36,098 bases of DNA from an uncultured Flavobacteriales bacterium (lineage in GTDB: Bacteria > Bacteroidota > Bacteroidia > Flavobacteriales_D > Sanyastnellaceae). The DNA lies in assembly GCA_937881575.1 (NCBI GenBank), contig CALGEI010000135.1, positions 1-36,098 of the forward strand. The letters run 5' to 3'. Under the pieces are notes generated by a model that ran no database searches, was not told the DNA's origin, and saw only the letters and a list, made by a program, of their open reading frames with translations. Position numbers and translations under genes: made by a program. Numbering within the stretch: the first letter of the stretch is position 1; the number at the start of each line of letters is the position of its first letter. Positions 16,747 to 21,819 of the stretch are shown here, in pieces.

Positions 16747-17283
16747 TCAGGATTGAAGGAGCCGATCAATTTGATTCGCTAAGTTGGCAATCTCAACTTG
16801 CTGCTCTGCGGTGGCGATAGAACCTCCTGACATCAGTTGCTGAATGCGTCGGGCCAATACGCGCGCCTCGTCCATCTTCGTAATTAGCTGCTGGCCTTCG
16901 CTTGCCATCAACTTACGTTGATGGTACAACCCCGCAGCTTCTTCAACGAGCGACTTCAGCTCCGCCTCATTCCACGGTTTGGAAATGTACTTGTAAATCT
17001 GCCCCTTGTTGATGGCGTCAATGACTGCATCGATGTCAGCATGCCCAGTAAGCAGCATTCGAATCGGGTCTGGGTTGTCCGGCATAATCAACTCAAAAAA
17101 CTCCACTCCGCTGAGCGAAGGCATTTTTTGATCCGAGATGATGACCTCAATGGGCTGCTCCCGCAAGATTCGGACAGCCTCAGTAGGCTCTGTTGTGACG
17201 TGCACCTGAAAGTCTCGACGGAACGCCGCGCGGAATGCCGTTAAGTTGTGCGACTCATCGTCGAGATAAAGTACATTGATCAT
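16747..17283 (-). CDS. Single-domain response regulator with C-terminal coiled helix
   Basis: The first ~120 residues form a CheY-like receiver: acidic pair Asp8-Asp9, phospho-acceptor Asp51 in IISDQKMPSLSG, Thr79 in LLTGH and Lys102 in YISKPW. This receiver subtype (SDQKMP, LTGH, YKYISKPW) is the one usually joined to HD-GYP or kinase outputs. Here it is followed only by ~55 residues of heptad-like helix with no DNA-binding or enzymatic domain. Its start overlaps the histidine-kinase stop by 4 bp, so the two are very probably cognate. The output must occur through a protein partner or as a phosphate sink. Confidence 0.9.
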   Translation of the reverse strand: MINVLYLDDESHNLTAFRAAFRRDFQVHVTTEPTEAVRILREQPIEVIISDQKMPSLSGVEFFELIMPDNPDPIRMLLTGHADIDAVIDAINKGQIYKYISKPWNEAELKSLVEEAAGLYHQRKLMASEGQQLITKMDEARVLARRIQQLMSGGSIATAEQQVEIANLANQIDRLLQS

Positions 17284-19439
17284 ATCGGAAATCGAATAAT
17301 AAATTCAGTGCCCAAGCCCACCTTGGACTGCACATCCACTTCAGCATTGTGATCCCGAAGGATGCCCATGACAATGCTCAAGCCCAAACCTGTTCCTTCA
17401 CCCACTGGTTTTGTTGTGAAAAACGGATCAAATATTTGCGCCTTCACAGCATCCTCCATGCCCGCACCATTGTCCTTGATCCGCACTTCAATCCAGGATT
17501 GGCCAATGCTCTCCACGCGCAGCGTAGACACCACGACTTCACGCTCTTCGAGCGTCAAGTTTGTGGCCTCGGTCGCTTGTGCTGCATTGGTAATGATGTT
17601 CATGAACACCTGATTGAGACGGCCCGGCTGGCACGAAAACTGAGGCAGGTCGCTCGCTAACTCAGACCGCACCTGCGACTGACTGCGCAGATTGCTACGC
17701 AGTACTACGAGTGTGGAGTTCATCAACTCGTTGATGTCCGCCTGGATAAAATTATCCCCGTCCATCCGACTGAAAATTCTCAAACCACGAACAATTTCAG
17801 AGGTTCGATTCGCACCATCTTCAATACCATTCAACAACTCCTCGATTTCTTGCTGAGTGAAGTCAATGTCGAGTTGGCCCAGCAGCGCGTGAATATCTTG
17901 AATGCGTGCGGCGATATTCGGATCGTCCACAGGCAAAGACTTCACAGCCTCAACGATGGCATTCAAATCTTCGAAATCGCGACGCAACGATTGAGCACTC
18001 GAACTGACAAAATTGATGGGATTGTTCAATTCATGCGCTATGCCCGCCGTCAACTGTCCTATTGAAGCGAGCTTTTCACTCTGAATCAACTGTTGCTGAG
18101 CCGACTGCAGCTCATTCAACGTCCCTTGCATCGTCGCATTGATCTCTTCCAATTCCGACGTTCGCTTCGTTACGCGTTCTTCCAAAACGACATTTTGATC
18201 GCGAACAATTTTCTCATTCACTTGTGCCAATTCAAGCTGCTCCTCTCGCGCTTTAGCACCATCCTTCTTCAGTTGATTGATCCGGCTCGCCAGAGCCAAT
18301 GACAAAAGGATGACCTCAAAAGCACTGCCGAGAGGCAAGGCAAAAAAGGTCCACTGATTGTAAGGAATTAAGCCCGTGTCTTTCAGAACAAAAACGATCA
18401 CAGCAGCGATGAATACAGAAAATGCAATGAGGAAATACCGCGCAGGCGCATATCCCTTTCGCATGGTGACAATCGCTCCTGGAATGAGAAAGAATATCGC
18501 TCCTGCGCAAAAATCGATGACGCGATAACTCCAGACTAACAAACCGAAAAGAGCCAAGACAAAGGCGACCAAGTATAACACGAAATAAACATTCAACAAC
18601 TTGTTCAGCCAAGGCACATAATGGCTCAAACGTAAAAAATTCTGAGCAAAAACGATGGTCGTCAATCCACTGAAAACTCCAAAAAAATGGGTGAGTCGCA
18701 AATTGAGCCAAGGCCAATTTTCAGCACCAAATACAGGAGCGTATCCATTCAGCACCAACTGTGTGCCACCGATCATCAGAATGTAGATGCTGTATTCCAG
18801 ATAGCTGCGATCACCAACACTCAGGAAGAGGAATAGATTGTAAAGGAGCATCACCAAGATCACTCCGAAGTAAGCGGCAAACAGGACGTCCCGCTCATGC
18901 GCCCCACGCAGCACCTCCCGCGGCCCTGTGATGCGCATGGGTATCAGTAAAGGCTTTGAAGACTGCAATCGAAACAGGGCTTGCATTTCACCACATTCTA
19001 CAAGCGGAATGGGAAAAGAAGGATAGGTTCCAATCCGCGAATCAATGGGCGTTTCATGAAAGACTCCGCGTTCGTAGGTCGCAATCATTTCACCGTCGCA
19101 TATCATGTAACAGATCAACTCATCAATGCCGGCGTTTTGGATTTCAATGAGTTGCCCATTTTCGGTTCGCGGGTCCACTTTGAGACGCAGCCATTGCGTG
19201 TTATTGGACAATCCCAAATTGGGCACCACTTCCAAGCGAGGTTCCCATTGATCCGAATTCACCAAATCAGTAACTTGAATCAAGGCTGGAGCTCCTTCTT
19301 GAGTCAGAGACTCTAAACGCTTTCCAATGTAGCCCTGGCCCGTTAACGAAGTGGACCAAACAAAGAGGCCGAGGAGCACAAGAAGACCACGGCTATTCCG
19401 CCCAGTGACCCACCCTAAATCCCTCAGTTCGCGCATCAA
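17280..19439 (-). CDS. 7TMR-DISM receptor histidine kinase
   Basis: The 719-aa membrane kinase has an N-terminal signal peptide and a periplasmic 7TMR-DISMED2-like beta-sandwich domain (about residues 36-175). Seven transmembrane helices follow (about 187-390, 7TMR-DISM_7TM), then a coiled coil, a HisKA-type dimerisation domain with phospho-accepting His469 in TAGIAHELNNPINF, and an HATPase_c domain with NQVFMNIITNAAQA, KDNGAGM and GTGLGLSIVMGI. The extracellular ligand of this receptor class is often unknown. It overlaps the receiver gene downstream and the GNAT-like gene upstream, each by 4 bp, which ties the sensor to putative biosynthetic genes. Confidence 0.93.
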   Translation of the reverse strand: MMRELRDLGWVTGRNSRGLLVLLGLFVWSTSLTGQGYIGKRLESLTQEGAPALIQVTDLVNSDQWEPRLEVVPNLGLSNNTQWLRLKVDPRTENGQLIEIQNAGIDELICYMICDGEMIATYERGVFHETPIDSRIGTYPSFPIPLVECGEMQALFRLQSSKPLLIPMRITGPREVLRGAHERDVLFAAYFGVILVMLLYNLFLFLSVGDRSYLEYSIYILMIGGTQLVLNGYAPVFGAENWPWLNLRLTHFFGVFSGLTTIVFAQNFLRLSHYVPWLNKLLNVYFVLYLVAFVLALFGLLVWSYRVIDFCAGAIFFLIPGAIVTMRKGYAPARYFLIAFSVFIAAVIVFVLKDTGLIPYNQWTFFALPLGSAFEVILLSLALASRINQLKKDGAKAREEQLELAQVNEKIVRDQNVVLEERVTKRTSELEEINATMQGTLNELQSAQQQLIQSEKLASIGQLTAGIAHELNNPINFVSSSAQSLRRDFEDLNAIVEAVKSLPVDDPNIAARIQDIHALLGQLDIDFTQQEIEELLNGIEDGANRTSEIVRGLRIFSRMDGDNFIQADINELMNSTLVVLRSNLRSQSQVRSELASDLPQFSCQPGRLNQVFMNIITNAAQATEATNLTLEEREVVVSTLRVESIGQSWIEVRIKDNGAGMEDAVKAQIFDPFFTTKPVGEGTGLGLSIVMGILRDHNAEVDVQSKVGLGTEFIIRFPI

Positions 19440-20197
19440 ACTTCAATTTTGAATCGCAATTTCAATTCGCCCTTAGGACCTTGAACTCGATAGACCATGC
19501 CCTCTGGATCCTGCCAGATGCCTTCCAACATTTGACGAACCTCAGGCTGAGCAATCTCCAATTGTTCCGGAAAGGTATACCGCGCAATGGTCGCTCGAAG
19601 TTTCGGTGTCGGATACGTGAAATAACCTTCATTGCCAATGCCTTCCTCTGTCAAAAAACCCAATGGAGCTTGCATCCGACGTGTTACGGGAGATGTCAAA
19701 GCAAACAAATGGCGACCACTGACCATCGTCAATGTTGCCATGGCCGCTTTGATCAGAAAGGTCGCCTCAACGCCCATTCCTGCCAATTCGATGCTGTTCC
19801 ACATTCCTCCCAATTCATAAGCTCCCTCCTCAACGAAGGGCGCCATGAAAGCAACCAAATTGGAATCCTGGTCGCCAATGGCCTGCATCAACGGCATGGA
19901 TTCCACAGACTCCGCCAAGTGCATACGTGCTCCTCCCAGGATTCGTTCTTCCAATCCATCCACTCCGGCACCACTGGCGATGGCCGCCACTACCAGTACA
20001 TTGGGATTGCCAATCCAATCCCGATTGAAAGTGGCCAGTTTCTGAATTCCATACGCCACCAAAACAGCCTGATGACCATCCACGAGAGCGTGGCATCGTT
20101 CAGGATATTCATCTGCACGAAATACGCGCACTTCAGCTTGAGCAATCCGCTCCGCCTGGTGCGCTCGATCAATTGACGGATTCAGTGAGCTGCTCAT
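19436..20197 (-). CDS. GNAT-like putative acyltransferase (FeeM/autoinducer-synthase-like?)
   Basis: No family assignment is certain. The 253-aa product shows features of a GNAT fold: ILGGARMHLAES resembles the beta-4/beta-5 region, AYELGGMWNSIELAGMGVEAT the acyl-CoA-binding strand and loop, and a helix, then a strand and RRMQAPLGFL, resembles the typical sP…GF end of GNAT domains. The wide spacing recalls N-acyl amino acid synthases of the FeeM type and LuxI-like enzymes, but this is inference. The frame could extend to 20290, but the ATG at 20197 avoids a long overlap; even so it overlaps the ThiF-like gene by 29 bases. Its stop overlaps the kinase start by 4 bp. Confidence 0.5.
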   Translation of the reverse strand: MSSSLNPSIDRAHQAERIAQAEVRVFRADEYPERCHALVDGHQAVLVAYGIQKLATFNRDWIGNPNVLVVAAIASGAGVDGLEERILGGARMHLAESVESMPLMQAIGDQDSNLVAFMAPFVEEGAYELGGMWNSIELAGMGVEATFLIKAAMATLTMVSGRHLFALTSPVTRRMQAPLGFLTEEGIGNEGYFTYPTPKLRATIARYTFPEQLEIAQPEVRQMLEGIWQDPEGMVYRVQGPKGELKLRFKIEV

Positions 20198-21254
20198 CCA
20201 ATGCGAGGTATAATCGGGCATCCGGCATGGATTCACCCAGTAAAATTTTACGAGTTGCTTGCGCAGCAAAAGCTCCGCCTGATGCGACATCAGAATACAA
20301 TTGAGGCCAGCCTACCAGAGTTTGTCCCACTTCTTGTAAACTGGAAACGCCACGTTCAGAAGCTTGAGCTAAGTCGACGAATAAATCCAAATGAGCCGGC
20401 TCCCACCCTGGAGCGTTCAACAACTGCCCCATGGTTTCTTCATCAATCCGTCCATGCAGGTATCCCGCAGGAATCGATTCGGGCATATCATAGCGTTCAA
20501 CATCGAGCATGCCGCGATCGGAAGTCTCCATGATGACCGGTAGTCTCCGTTCTTTTGCTTCCTTTCGAATGCGCGCCTTTGCTGACACCTCGTCACAGGC
20601 GTCACAAACGATATCCAAACCGTCCAAAAATTCAGACGACTCTTCCTCTATGAAGCCATTCAAGTGCAATTCCACTGGGAAAAACGGATCAATTTCAGCG
20701 ATTTCCCTCGCTGTGACGACGCCTTTCGGCATGCCCAACGAAAAAATACCCGTCCGAATCCGATTCATGTTGGAAAGCTGCAACGTATCGAAATCTGCCA
20801 AGCGGAGTTTACCGCAAGACCGTTCCATTGCCAAGGCCAAGGCGTAAGAGCTCCCTACGGACAGGCCTACGATGCCCACCGTTTTTTGATTCAGCACCGC
20901 CTGCTCTTCGCGGGTGATCCGATTCCGGTTGCGATTGGTTCGCAACTCGATAAAAGCCTCCCGATCAAGCACATGCACCATTGTTTGGCGCCAAGGATAC
21001 CAAACCCAAATTCCACATTGCTCCCAATCTCGGCCGTGAATGTATGCTTCAACTTCACCGGCCAGTGCCGCTGGGTTCTGCTTCAAACTGGGCTTCCGTG
21101 TGACGAGCAGTTCCATCAACTGATCTTCCAGCGTATCGCATACTTCGCGAACTTCCCCTGAAGCCCTCAATTCATCCCATCGCAATCGATCTGGGGACTG
21201 AGACAACTCCAACAATTCAGGAGTCCACGATGAAAGGGGATATGTTGCGTGCAA
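20169..21254 (-). CDS. ThiF/E1-like adenylyltransferase, Rv1355c-family-like, lacking the nitroreductase half
   Basis: ThiF/MoeB/E1 enzymes adenylate a carboxylate, often the end of a ubiquitin-like protein. In this 361-aa protein an N-terminal ~115-residue region (GIWVWYPWRQTMVHVLDREAF, ELRTNRNRNRIT) precedes the Rossmann adenylation domain: GIVGLSVGSSYALALAME for nucleotide binding, ADFDTLQLSNMNRIRTG for the D…N-x-NR motif, and DIVCDACDE. This arrangement matches my recollection of the first half of Bacteroidota and mycobacterial Rv1355c-family proteins, which continue into a nitroreductase-like domain that is absent here. There is no ATG; TTG at 21254 is the best start, since an in-frame stop lies six codons upstream. 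It is the first gene of the operon, and a palindrome lies just upstream. No ubiquitin-like substrate gene is nearby. Confidence 0.82.
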   Translation of the reverse strand: MHATYPLSSWTPELLELSQSPDRLRWDELRASGEVREVCDTLEDQLMELLVTRKPSLKQNPAALAGEVEAYIHGRDWEQCGIWVWYPWRQTMVHVLDREAFIELRTNRNRNRITREEQAVLNQKTVGIVGLSVGSSYALALAMERSCGKLRLADFDTLQLSNMNRIRTGIFSLGMPKGVVTAREIAEIDPFFPVELHLNGFIEEESSEFLDGLDIVCDACDEVSAKARIRKEAKERRLPVIMETSDRGMLDVERYDMPESIPAGYLHGRIDEETMGQLLNAPGWEPAHLDLFVDLAQASERGVSSLQEVGQTLVGWPQLYSDVASGGAFAAQATRKILLGESMPDARLYLALDEQLTESVN

Positions 21255-21396: not shown

Positions 21397-21819
21397 ATGA
21401 CACCCTTCCAATCCACTCCATCGATTTGGATCGCTTACCGGAGCCTAGATGAAACCAACTCCCTCATAGAACGAATGGAGTCGTTTGCTCAAGGTCGGAA
21501 GTTGCAAAATATCTCTGAAGACATTCTGAAATTTGCCGAGGAGGTTCATCGCATTCCCATGATTTGGTTGCTGGTCGATCAAACCTTGAGTTCGGATGAG
21601 GCCTTGATTTCTGCAGCCGTGGAGGCTCAAAAGTGCAACGAATTCTTTCGCTGTGCTGTGACTGGAGCTCAATCACCTGATTCTTGGCCAAGTTGCACCA
21701 TCCACTTGAACGCCAATTCACTTTCTACCGAAGTCTTGGACCGGTTGCGAAACGAATCCCACGCTTTGCGCATCGTCAACAGTCGCTTGCGCCACATGCG
21801 ACGTCTGCAAAATCGTTGA
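21397..21819 (+). CDS. Hypothetical protein
   Basis: A 140-aa protein I do not recognise. It has no signal peptide or membrane segment. It appears to be a soluble alpha/beta protein with a C-terminal basic helix (RLRHMRRLQNR). It diverges from the ThiF-like operon across 142 bases that contain the palindrome and an AT-rich TATAAT directly before its ATG. Its TGA abuts the TAA of the convergent DUF4924 gene with no intervening base. Sequence composition is like its neighbours and the frame dominates this interval, so I take it as a real gene. Confidence 0.68.
   Translation: MTPFQSTPSIWIAYRSLDETNSLIERMESFAQGRKLQNISEDILKFAEEVHRIPMIWLLVDQTLSSDEALISAAVEAQKCNEFFRCAVTGAQSPDSWPSCTIHLNANSLSTEVLDRLRNESHALRIVNSRLRHMRRLQNR

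What the first reader, a model, noticed from the sequence alone, without database searches (positions are those of the whole stretch)
16747..21254. Four-gene ThiF-like / GNAT-like / 7TMR-DISM kinase / receiver operon: possible signal synthesis and sensing cassette
Seen: four minus-strand genes in one unit with 4-, 4- and 29-base overlaps. The first two look biosynthetic (an adenylyltransferase and a GNAT-like acyltransferase), and the last two are a seven-helix receptor kinase with an extracellular domain and a stand-alone receiver. Known: ThiF-type enzymes activate carboxylates; FeeM and LuxI-type GNATs make acylated signals; 7TMR-DISM kinases sense ligands that are mostly unknown. Inferred: the first two proteins could make a small acyl or amide molecule that the kinase senses, a quorum-type loop not described to my knowledge.
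Basis: partly seen in the sequence, partly recalled or inferred. Interest (0 to 1): 0.72.

Follow-up and report, generated by a model that had tools for sequence, protein, structure and literature searches.

The report
Acyl-oxazolone synthesis genes with sensor kinase
Four neighbouring bacterial genes look like a maker of a small fatty amino-acid molecule coupled to a membrane sensor, a set kept together across many Bacteroidota and possibly a new way for these bacteria to signal to each other.

Summary
The GNAT-like protein folds like FeeM and acyl-homoserine-lactone synthases (pLDDT 91.8; FeeM first, Z 16.1). The ThiF protein is the N-terminal half of the Rv1355c/TrzS family. The flavin oxidase domain of many relatives is missing here. 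In 345 sampled Bacteroidota genomes the acyltransferase occurs in 12 and sits beside a 7TMR-DISM kinase in 12 of 12. In the window's family 51 of 61 genomes have ThiF-GNAT-kinase in this order; five of the other ten look contig-broken. In a second family the ThiF gene is sometimes replaced by a methyltransferase, an FAD oxidase or nothing, while the kinase is present in 44 of 44 cassettes read. Many relatives add a receiver-kinase and lone receivers, the domain set of the Ralstonia phcBSRQ quorum operon. That the kinase binds the product is inferred, not shown; it may only control synthesis. New variant of a known kind.

The parts
20169..21254 (-). ThiF-like cyclase gene (361 aa, TTG start), N-terminal half of the Rv1355c/TrzS family; predicted ATP-dependent closure of an N-acyl amino acid to a 5-oxazolone; no flavin oxidase domain here
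   Evidence: PF00899 63 bits; NF005901 377 bits, E 1.6e-112, residues 8-358 to model 9-341 of 722, below its cut-off of 476; R105, R108, D154, D156, N162, R165, K177, D221 identical in 81 of 81 aligned rows
19436..20197 (-). FeeM/LuxI-type GNAT gene (253 aa), predicted amino-acid N-acyltransferase
   Evidence: AlphaFold model pLDDT 91.8, pTM 0.89; FeeM 2g0b best Foldseek hit E 4.7e-8, VIA Z 16.1, 2.9 A over 183 residues; homologue L078 matches Pfam FeeM 27.8 bits against cut-off 27
17280..19439 (-). 7TMR-DISM sensor histidine kinase (719 aa from TTG; 718 aa from ATG 19436)
   Evidence: PF07696, PF07695, PF00512, PF02518; H-box HELNNP at 469, G-box GTGLGL at 682; H-box in 89 of 89 such kinase ORFs over 600 aa in loci L043-L142
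16747..17283 (-). stand-alone receiver protein (178 aa); aligns to the N-terminal part of the 362-aa receiver-kinase of relatives, kinase half missing
   Evidence: PF00072 68.8 bits; alignment

Best explanation
A chemical signalling cassette. Step 1: the GNAT-like enzyme joins an acyl group (from acyl-CoA or acyl-carrier protein) to an amino acid. Step 2: the ThiF-like enzyme adenylates the carboxylate with ATP and closes the ring to an N-acyl 5-oxazolone; in this lineage it is probably not desaturated, because the flavin oxidase domain is missing. Steps 1 and 2 are inferred from homology to TyzA/TyzB and TrzA/TrzS, whose reactions were shown in print. Step 3: the neutral, lipid-like product, or the N-acyl amino acid itself, reaches the outer face of the inner membrane or neighbouring cells and is bound by the 7TMR-DISMED2/7TM part of the kinase. 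Step 4: the kinase phosphorylates the receiver protein encoded after it, which has no DNA-binding domain and acts through protein contacts or a phosphorelay. Steps 3 and 4 are inferred from strict linkage, from presence of the kinase whichever tailoring enzyme is there, and from the domain set shared with the phcBSRQ quorum operon.
For: Fold: FeeM, LasI, RpaI and BjaI are among the best matches. Homology to the oxazolone pathway: NF005901, 41% identity to a Rhodococcus Rv1355c-family protein; the GNAT profile gives 29 bits with the putative TrzA homologue beside that gene. Published chemistry. Linkage: 51 of 61 family genomes in order ThiF-GNAT-HK; phylum sample, acyltransferase in 12 of 345 genomes, 12 of 12 beside a 7TMR-DISM kinase; GTDB scan, best 80 loci, 73 with the kinase, 4 cut by contig ends, 3 without; second family, 44 of 44 cassettes read. 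Tailoring enzyme varies with the kinase present. Receiver-kinase in 37 and divergent lone receiver in 36 of 40 second-family regions; a further small receiver directly behind the receiver or receiver-kinase in 40 of 89 loci; phcBSRQ domain set. Acyl-tryptophan intermediates of TrzAS were found mainly in culture supernatant.
Against: No ligand, export or density evidence. 7TMR-DISM sensors of this type also occur without the acyltransferase: 57 of 345 genomes have a sensor match at E<=1e-30 (a lower bound, as at most 5 candidates per genome were scored) and 12 have the acyltransferase. Three of 80 loci have ThiF without a 7TMR kinase (Brevibacillus, Xanthomonadaceae, Saprospiraceae), and in the four Actinomycetota plasmid loci read no kinase is annotated next to the ThiF gene. 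The kinase could instead control production in answer to another cue. Oxazolones are hydrolysed by acid and attacked by alcohols, and tryptazolones were more abundant inside cells, which does not favour a diffusible signal. The window GNAT reaches no Pfam family, and a plain Pseudomonas acyltransferase (1xeb, Z 15.3 over 146 residues) ties with FeeM within one Z unit.
Confidence: 0.55

Rival explanations
1. The kinase is the regulator of the pathway, not the receptor of its product: it senses an outside cue (envelope stress, sugars, antibiotics) and switches on synthesis of an oxazolone or N-acyl amino acid that serves as antibiotic, membrane lipid or stress metabolite.
For: Same operon; the tryptazolone paper says that subinhibitory antibiotics induced oxazolones in several proteobacteria and that N-acyl tyrosines of Stieleria are antimicrobial; 7TMR-DISM sensors also occur without the acyltransferase.
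Against: No DNA-binding domain in the operon's receiver or in the receiver-kinases and lone receivers of relatives that were scanned; one kinase type keeps its place next to the acyltransferase whichever tailoring enzyme is present.
Confidence: 0.28
2. Ubiquitin-like or protein-modifying pair: the ThiF-like protein activates a protein C-terminus and the GNAT acetylates a protein, as in the E1-like enzymes of CBASS-type defence.
For: E1-E2 models of PADLOC match the ThiF domain partly, best 35 bits; MoeB and TcdA are the nearest solved sequences.
Against: The match to the Rv1355c family over nearly the whole protein is far stronger (377 bits); the acyltransferase fold is FeeM/LuxI-like; the five flanking ORFs scanned show no E2, ubiquitin-like or nucleotidyltransferase domain.
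Confidence: 0.07
3. The linkage is only inherited synteny without a working link between enzymes and kinase.
For: Within the window's own family the flanking genes (DUF4924, M42 peptidase) are also conserved.
Against: DUF4924 and M42 were found near the cassette only in Flavobacteriales-type loci, while the gene families shared most widely between loci are the cassette's own; two gene orders exist, ThiF-GNAT-HK 44 and GNAT-ThiF-HK 29 of 73; the kinase is present with every tailoring type.
Confidence: 0.05

Closest known systems
TrzA/TrzS (Rv1356c/Rv1355c) tryptazolone pathway, PMC12856293
   Same: ThiF-like cyclase of the same NCBIfam family beside a FeeM-like N-acyltransferase; 27 of the 80 best Bacteroidota-rich GTDB ThiF ORFs carry an oxidase-type C-terminal domain like TrzS
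   Different: Window ThiF lacks the oxidase half; a 7TMR-DISM kinase and receiver follow in the operon; the paper has no hit for 'histidine kinase' and names c-di-GMP genes as neighbours
TyzA/TyzB/TyzC tyrazolone pathway, PMC10404671, and OxzAB of P. rubra (de Rond 2021, not held; known through the two JBC papers)
   Same: Same two chemical steps by a FeeM-like acyltransferase and a ThiF homologue
   Different: Oxidase present as a separate gene (Tyz); no kinase in the cluster as described
phcBSRQ quorum operon of Ralstonia (PMC8578825, passages)
   Same: Signal-making enzyme, sensor kinase, receiver-kinase without DNA-binding domain, lone receiver; many relatives of the window have this domain set, the small receiver often directly behind the receiver-kinase
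   Different: PhcB is a methyltransferase making methyl 3-hydroxymyristate; here an N-acyltransferase with ThiF; the sensor is 7TMR-DISM; the window's receiver has lost the kinase half and no small receiver follows it; sequence kinship to PhcS/PhcR/PhcQ not tested
LuxI-type acyl-homoserine lactone synthases (LasI, BjaI, RpaI)
   Same: Same fold, Z 15.2-15.6
   Different: Sequence identity 8-15%; no LuxR-type receptor in the operon; homoserine lactone as product is not suggested

Membership tests
Rv1355c/TrzS family (NF005901) | ThiF-like cyclase domain over the N-terminal half | tested here: met
   377 bits, E 1.6e-112, residues 8-358; 41% identity to a Rhodococcus member
Rv1355c/TrzS family (NF005901) | whole-protein score over the curated cut-off 476, and C-terminal flavin oxidase domain | tested here: not met
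   377 of 476 bits; the ORF ends after the ThiF domain; three nitroreductases elsewhere in the genome match the relatives' oxidase domain at 6.3 bits or less
Rv1355c/TrzS family (NF005901) | cyclisation of N-acyl amino acid | not testable with these tools
   needs assay
FeeM-type N-acyl amino acid synthases | FeeM fold | tested here: met
   FeeM first in Foldseek and Z 16.1, 2.9 A over 183; LasI 15.6, 1xeb 15.3, RpaI and BjaI 15.2 are tied with it
FeeM-type N-acyl amino acid synthases | Pfam PF21926 match | tested here: inconclusive
   no match for the window protein; homologue L078 just over cut-off (27.8 of 27), and L078 scores 44-46 bits with window-family profiles that do not contain it
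FeeM-type N-acyl amino acid synthases | N-acylation of an amino acid | not testable with these tools
   needs assay
7TMR-DISM sensor kinases | 7TMR-DISM_7TM with DISMED2 and intact HisKA/HATPase_c | tested here: met
   H- and G-boxes
Phc-type quorum operons | receiver-kinase without DNA-binding domain plus lone receiver | tested here: inconclusive
   window has only a receiver of 178 aa; second-family relatives have receiver-kinase in 37 and divergent lone receiver in 36 of 40
Phc-type quorum operons | signal made by a PhcB-type methyltransferase | tested here: not met
   window has GNAT and ThiF; methyltransferases occur in 6 of 44 second-family cassettes, kinship to PhcB not tested
Phc-type quorum operons | kinase binds the operon's own product | not testable with these tools
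   needs binding or phosphorylation assay
CBASS E1-E2 systems | E1-E2 fusion with a nucleotidyltransferase | tested here: not met
   partial E1 match only, 35 bits; no E2 domain in the protein, no nucleotidyltransferase among the flanking ORFs scanned

The most novel reading that the evidence does not exclude
A previously unrecognised family of chemical communication systems in Bacteroidota: a FeeM-type N-acyltransferase makes the core signal, an exchangeable tailoring enzyme (ThiF cyclase with or without flavin oxidase, carboxyl methyltransferase, soluble methyltransferase, FAD oxidase, or none) caps or alters it, and a dedicated 7TMR-DISM kinase with a receiver-kinase relay reads it. It would give acyl-oxazolones a function and 7TMR-DISM kinases a new ligand class.
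Probability: 0.5. Interest if true: 0.88.

Novelty: new variant of a known kind. Interest (0 to 1): 0.78.

Why it matters
The 2025 tryptazolone paper calls the physiological role of oxazolones a major unresolved question and suggests, without a receptor, that they resemble cell-cell signals. A candidate receptor encoded beside the synthase, conserved in many Bacteroidota, makes that question directly testable in harmless laboratory-grown species. It would also supply a candidate acyl-type signal system for Bacteroidota and a ligand class for 7TMR-DISM kinases.

Tried and rejected
Ideas dropped. (1) The ThiF-GNAT pair as the fixed unit: ThiF is replaceable and only GNAT plus kinase is constant in the second family. 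(2) A hidden flavin oxidase elsewhere in the window's genome: three short nitroreductases, none close to the relatives' oxidase domain (6.3 bits or less); only places with a PF00881 match at E<=0.01 were checked, not the whole genome with that domain. (3) ThiF family common in Pseudomonadota: 12 of 249 genomes matched at 1e-20, but 11 of them at 73-91 bits over the central ThiF motif only, so I count 1 of 249, the centre genome itself. (4) Defence role: only weak E1-E2 matches. (5) A decayed methyltransferase in the gap of L252: no trace by tblastn. (6) A further conserved neighbour such as a transporter: none among the 28 largest clusters that one search printed; several of those clusters I took for shadow ORFs from their position and strand, without testing. 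One of them I first took wrongly for a shadow ORF: it is a small receiver gene and is now in the report. (7) Not used: viral-collection scans, Rfam, the second structure job, supplements of papers.

Literature limits: the library holds only open-licence PMC papers. Searches for a link between oxazolone or FeeM-type enzymes and 7TMR-DISM or histidine kinases: 25 of 344 papers listed; 20 of 635; 5 of 5; 11 of 11; 8 of 29; for the oxazolone papers themselves: 25 of 116; 5 of 5; 15 of 841, mostly unrelated words. No title or abstract start in these listings describes this cassette; apart from four papers (PMC10404671, PMC12856293, PMC8578825, PMC12479983) I opened none. de Rond 2021 (OxzAB) is not held, so what it says on neighbours is unknown to me.
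Full report
What is there. One detail: the kinase can start at TTG 19439 (4-base overlap) or at the next codon, ATG 19436 (1-base TGATG overlap). Pfam finds ThiF in the first; nothing in the second; DISMED2, 7TM, HisKA and HATPase_c in the third; a receiver in the fourth. NCBIfam adds that the ThiF protein matches the N-terminal half of the Rv1355c family (NF005901, 377 bits against a cut-off of 476). The genome is probably of Flavobacteriales: a same-genus genome, G024, has the cassette on a contig of the same length (97184) as a record titled 'uncultured Flavobacteriales bacterium' (L044).

The acyltransferase. From 51 sequences (window plus 50 relatives from GTDB contigs) AlphaFold gave a model of mean pLDDT 91.8 and pTM 0.89. 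[quoted passage not shown]). VIA-align gives FeeM Z 16.1 (2.9 A over 183 residues), LasI 15.6 (184), a plain Pseudomonas acyltransferase 1xeb 15.3 (146), RpaI and BjaI 15.2 (189). These are tied, so the model says 'GNAT, and over its longest alignments FeeM/LuxI-type', not FeeM in particular. By sequence the bridge is a Xanthomonadaceae homologue (L078): it scores 44-46 bits with window-family profiles that do not contain it (156 bits with one that does) and 27.8 bits with Pfam FeeM (cut-off 27). The ORF beside an Rv1355c-family gene on a Rhodococcus plasmid, which I take for a TrzA homologue from its position, scores 29 bits.

The cyclase. Identity to the best Rhodococcus Rv1355c-family protein is 41%. 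Residues of the ThiF/MoeB adenylation motif (roles recalled, not from a call) are identical in 81 of 81 aligned rows, among them D154, D156, R165, K177 and D221. Which of them corresponds to D217 of M. smegmatis TrzS was not established. In print, TyzA N-acylates tyrosine or phenylalanine and the ThiF homologue TyzB closes the ring with ATP (PMC10404671: abstract, two sections and passages seen); TrzA and TrzS do the same with tryptophan, cyclisation before flavin-dependent desaturation (PMC12856293: abstract, three sections and passages seen). Of the 80 best GTDB ThiF ORFs, 27 carry a C-terminal part like that of Dyadobacter L069, which scores 92 bits with the C-terminal half of the Rhodococcus protein though it is just under the Pfam nitroreductase cut-off (21.1 of 23.5). 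The window's ThiF ends before that part, and three nitroreductases found elsewhere in its genome do not resemble it. I therefore expect a saturated oxazolone here.

Conservation in the window's family. The acyltransferase is found in 52 of 61 genomes (E<=1e-3), ThiF in 54 of 61 (E<=1e-20), the sensor in 55 of 61 (E<=1e-10). In 51 of 61 all three lie together on one strand, always ThiF-GNAT-HK. The other ten: five are consistent with contig breaks (G013, G021, G026, G044, G045); four have none of the three at these thresholds (G018, G019, G033, G052); G007 has two sensor matches, and the one whose surroundings were read has no cassette gene near.

Conservation in the phylum. Of 345 sampled genomes 11 have the ThiF family (E<=1e-20), 12 the acyltransferase (E<=1e-10) and 57 a sensor match (E<=1e-30). 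At most 5, 8 and 5 first-look candidates per genome were scored in these calls, so the counts, above all the last, are lower bounds. All 12 acyltransferases lie beside a 7TMR-DISM kinase: the window, G005, nine, and G185. The ten highest sensor matches belong to cassettes, and all 12 cassettes are among the top 23 of the 79 listed; the rest are sensors without a matching acyltransferase, of which the surroundings of four were read. The profile was built from cassette sensors, which favours this ranking. Two of the 345 genomes belong to the window's family.

Conservation in GTDB. GNAT is beside or fused to ThiF in 78 of 80 (some partial at contig ends, L114 in pieces). The kinase follows in 73: 69 by script plus L059, L067, L070 and L079, where the kinase overlaps the preceding ORF and the script's distance rule missed it. 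Four loci stop at contig ends (L060, L077, L084, L091). Three lack a 7TMR kinase: L066 Brevibacillus (a PAS kinase lies 1.9 kb away), L078 Xanthomonadaceae, L099 Saprospiraceae, where ThiF and GNAT are one ORF. Two orders occur, ThiF-GNAT-HK (44) and GNAT-ThiF-HK (25 by script plus those four, 29). A receiver follows the kinase in 68 of 73 (64 by script plus the four); four stop at the contig end and in L098 it lies 0.9 kb further on. These loci were ranked by similarity to the window's ThiF, so they are not an unbiased sample.

The tailoring enzyme changes, the kinase stays. G185 has GNAT, then an isoprenylcysteine-carboxyl-methyltransferase-like gene (PF04140, 70.6 bits), then kinase and receiver-kinase, and no ThiF. 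In its family (Chitinophagaceae, judging by the title of L117, identical over 12421 bases to L289) 46 of 147 genomes have the acyltransferase. I read the surroundings in 44 of these 46; G680 and G752 are fragments at contig ends. All 44 have the 7TMR-DISM kinase in the unit. Tailoring genes: ThiF with or without oxidase 28; ICMT-type methyltransferase 4; soluble methyltransferase 2; FAD oxidase 1; none 8; unknown 1 at a contig end (L261). The 16 genomes without ThiF in the unit show no such ThiF elsewhere: best matches 58.5 bits or less, against 274 or more for uncut cassette proteins; two of the 16 are only 69% and 80% complete. On a quick tree of 76 acyltransferases (window, 33 loci chosen by me, the second-family regions and L195) the ThiF label needs 3 changes (shuffled mean 13.9, 0 of 500 as low); ICMT and 'none' rows are scattered within one clade that also holds ThiF rows. 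The tree is a short search with SH-aLRT only, its outgroup is on a very long branch, and the branches of that clade are mostly not starred. [quoted passage not shown]).

The relay. Of 40 second-family regions, 37 have a receiver-HisKA-HATPase protein and 36 a lone receiver of about 155 aa, usually divergent. A further small receiver of about 130-150 aa lies directly behind the receiver or receiver-kinase in 40 of 89 loci L043-L131, and in five Sphingobacterium loci directly before the GNAT gene; in the second family 20 of 40 regions have it at over 100 bits. Pfam Response_reg is over cut-off in seven of seven that were scanned with this in view and in L206. The window has no such gene; its own receiver (17.7 bits) is the only match. 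The window's receiver aligns with the first part of the receiver-kinase and ends where the kinase half begins. The phcBSRQ operon has the same kinds of parts in the same order, enzyme, kinase, receiver-kinase, lone receiver (PMC8578825, passages). That is a likeness of design; kinship was not tested.

Verdict. The synthesis half is a new member of a known pathway; the coupling to a dedicated sensor kinase, kept whichever tailoring enzyme is present, is the new thing. I put 0.55 on product sensing and 0.28 on the kinase merely controlling production. No paper describing the cassette appeared in the listings, most of them capped, in a library of open-licence papers only.

Noticed in passing
L099:6409-8307: Saprospiraceae MAG: ThiF and GNAT fused in one 632-aa ORF, without a 7TMR kinase match in the 15-kb locus.
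   Followed up: partly
L066:7058-9071: Brevibacillus borstelensis ThiF (44% identity) overlapped by an upstream 283-aa ORF with no Pfam match and no match to the acyltransferase profile; ABC transporter, PAS kinase and gyrase genes nearby.
   Followed up: partly
L148:5914-7712: Streptomyces plasmid: ThiF family gene (41% identity) overlapping by 4 bases a GNAT gene that does not match the acyltransferase profile; maybe an independent pairing.
   Followed up: no
L114:7941-10014: Cytophagales MAG cassette in which ThiF (292 aa) and GNAT (two pieces) look broken while kinase and receiver are full length; sequencing error or decay.
   Followed up: no
L105:4081-5637: A receiver-PglZ (PorX-like) gene lies about 2.3 kb upstream of the cassette in Algoriphagus; eight further loci show a weak receiver match at a like place, not scanned.
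   Followed up: no
L260:8296-10260: Two acyltransferase genes in tandem between ThiF-oxidase and kinase.
   Followed up: no
L195:9845-10162: A thioredoxin gene of 105 aa (PF00085, 108.6 bits) lies behind the divergent lone receiver; ORFs of the same length lie at the same place in several other second-family loci, not scanned.
   Followed up: partly
window 21397-21819: A 140-aa plus-strand ORF without family match, conserved divergent from the ThiF gene in the window's genus and one near genus among the loci read.
   Followed up: no
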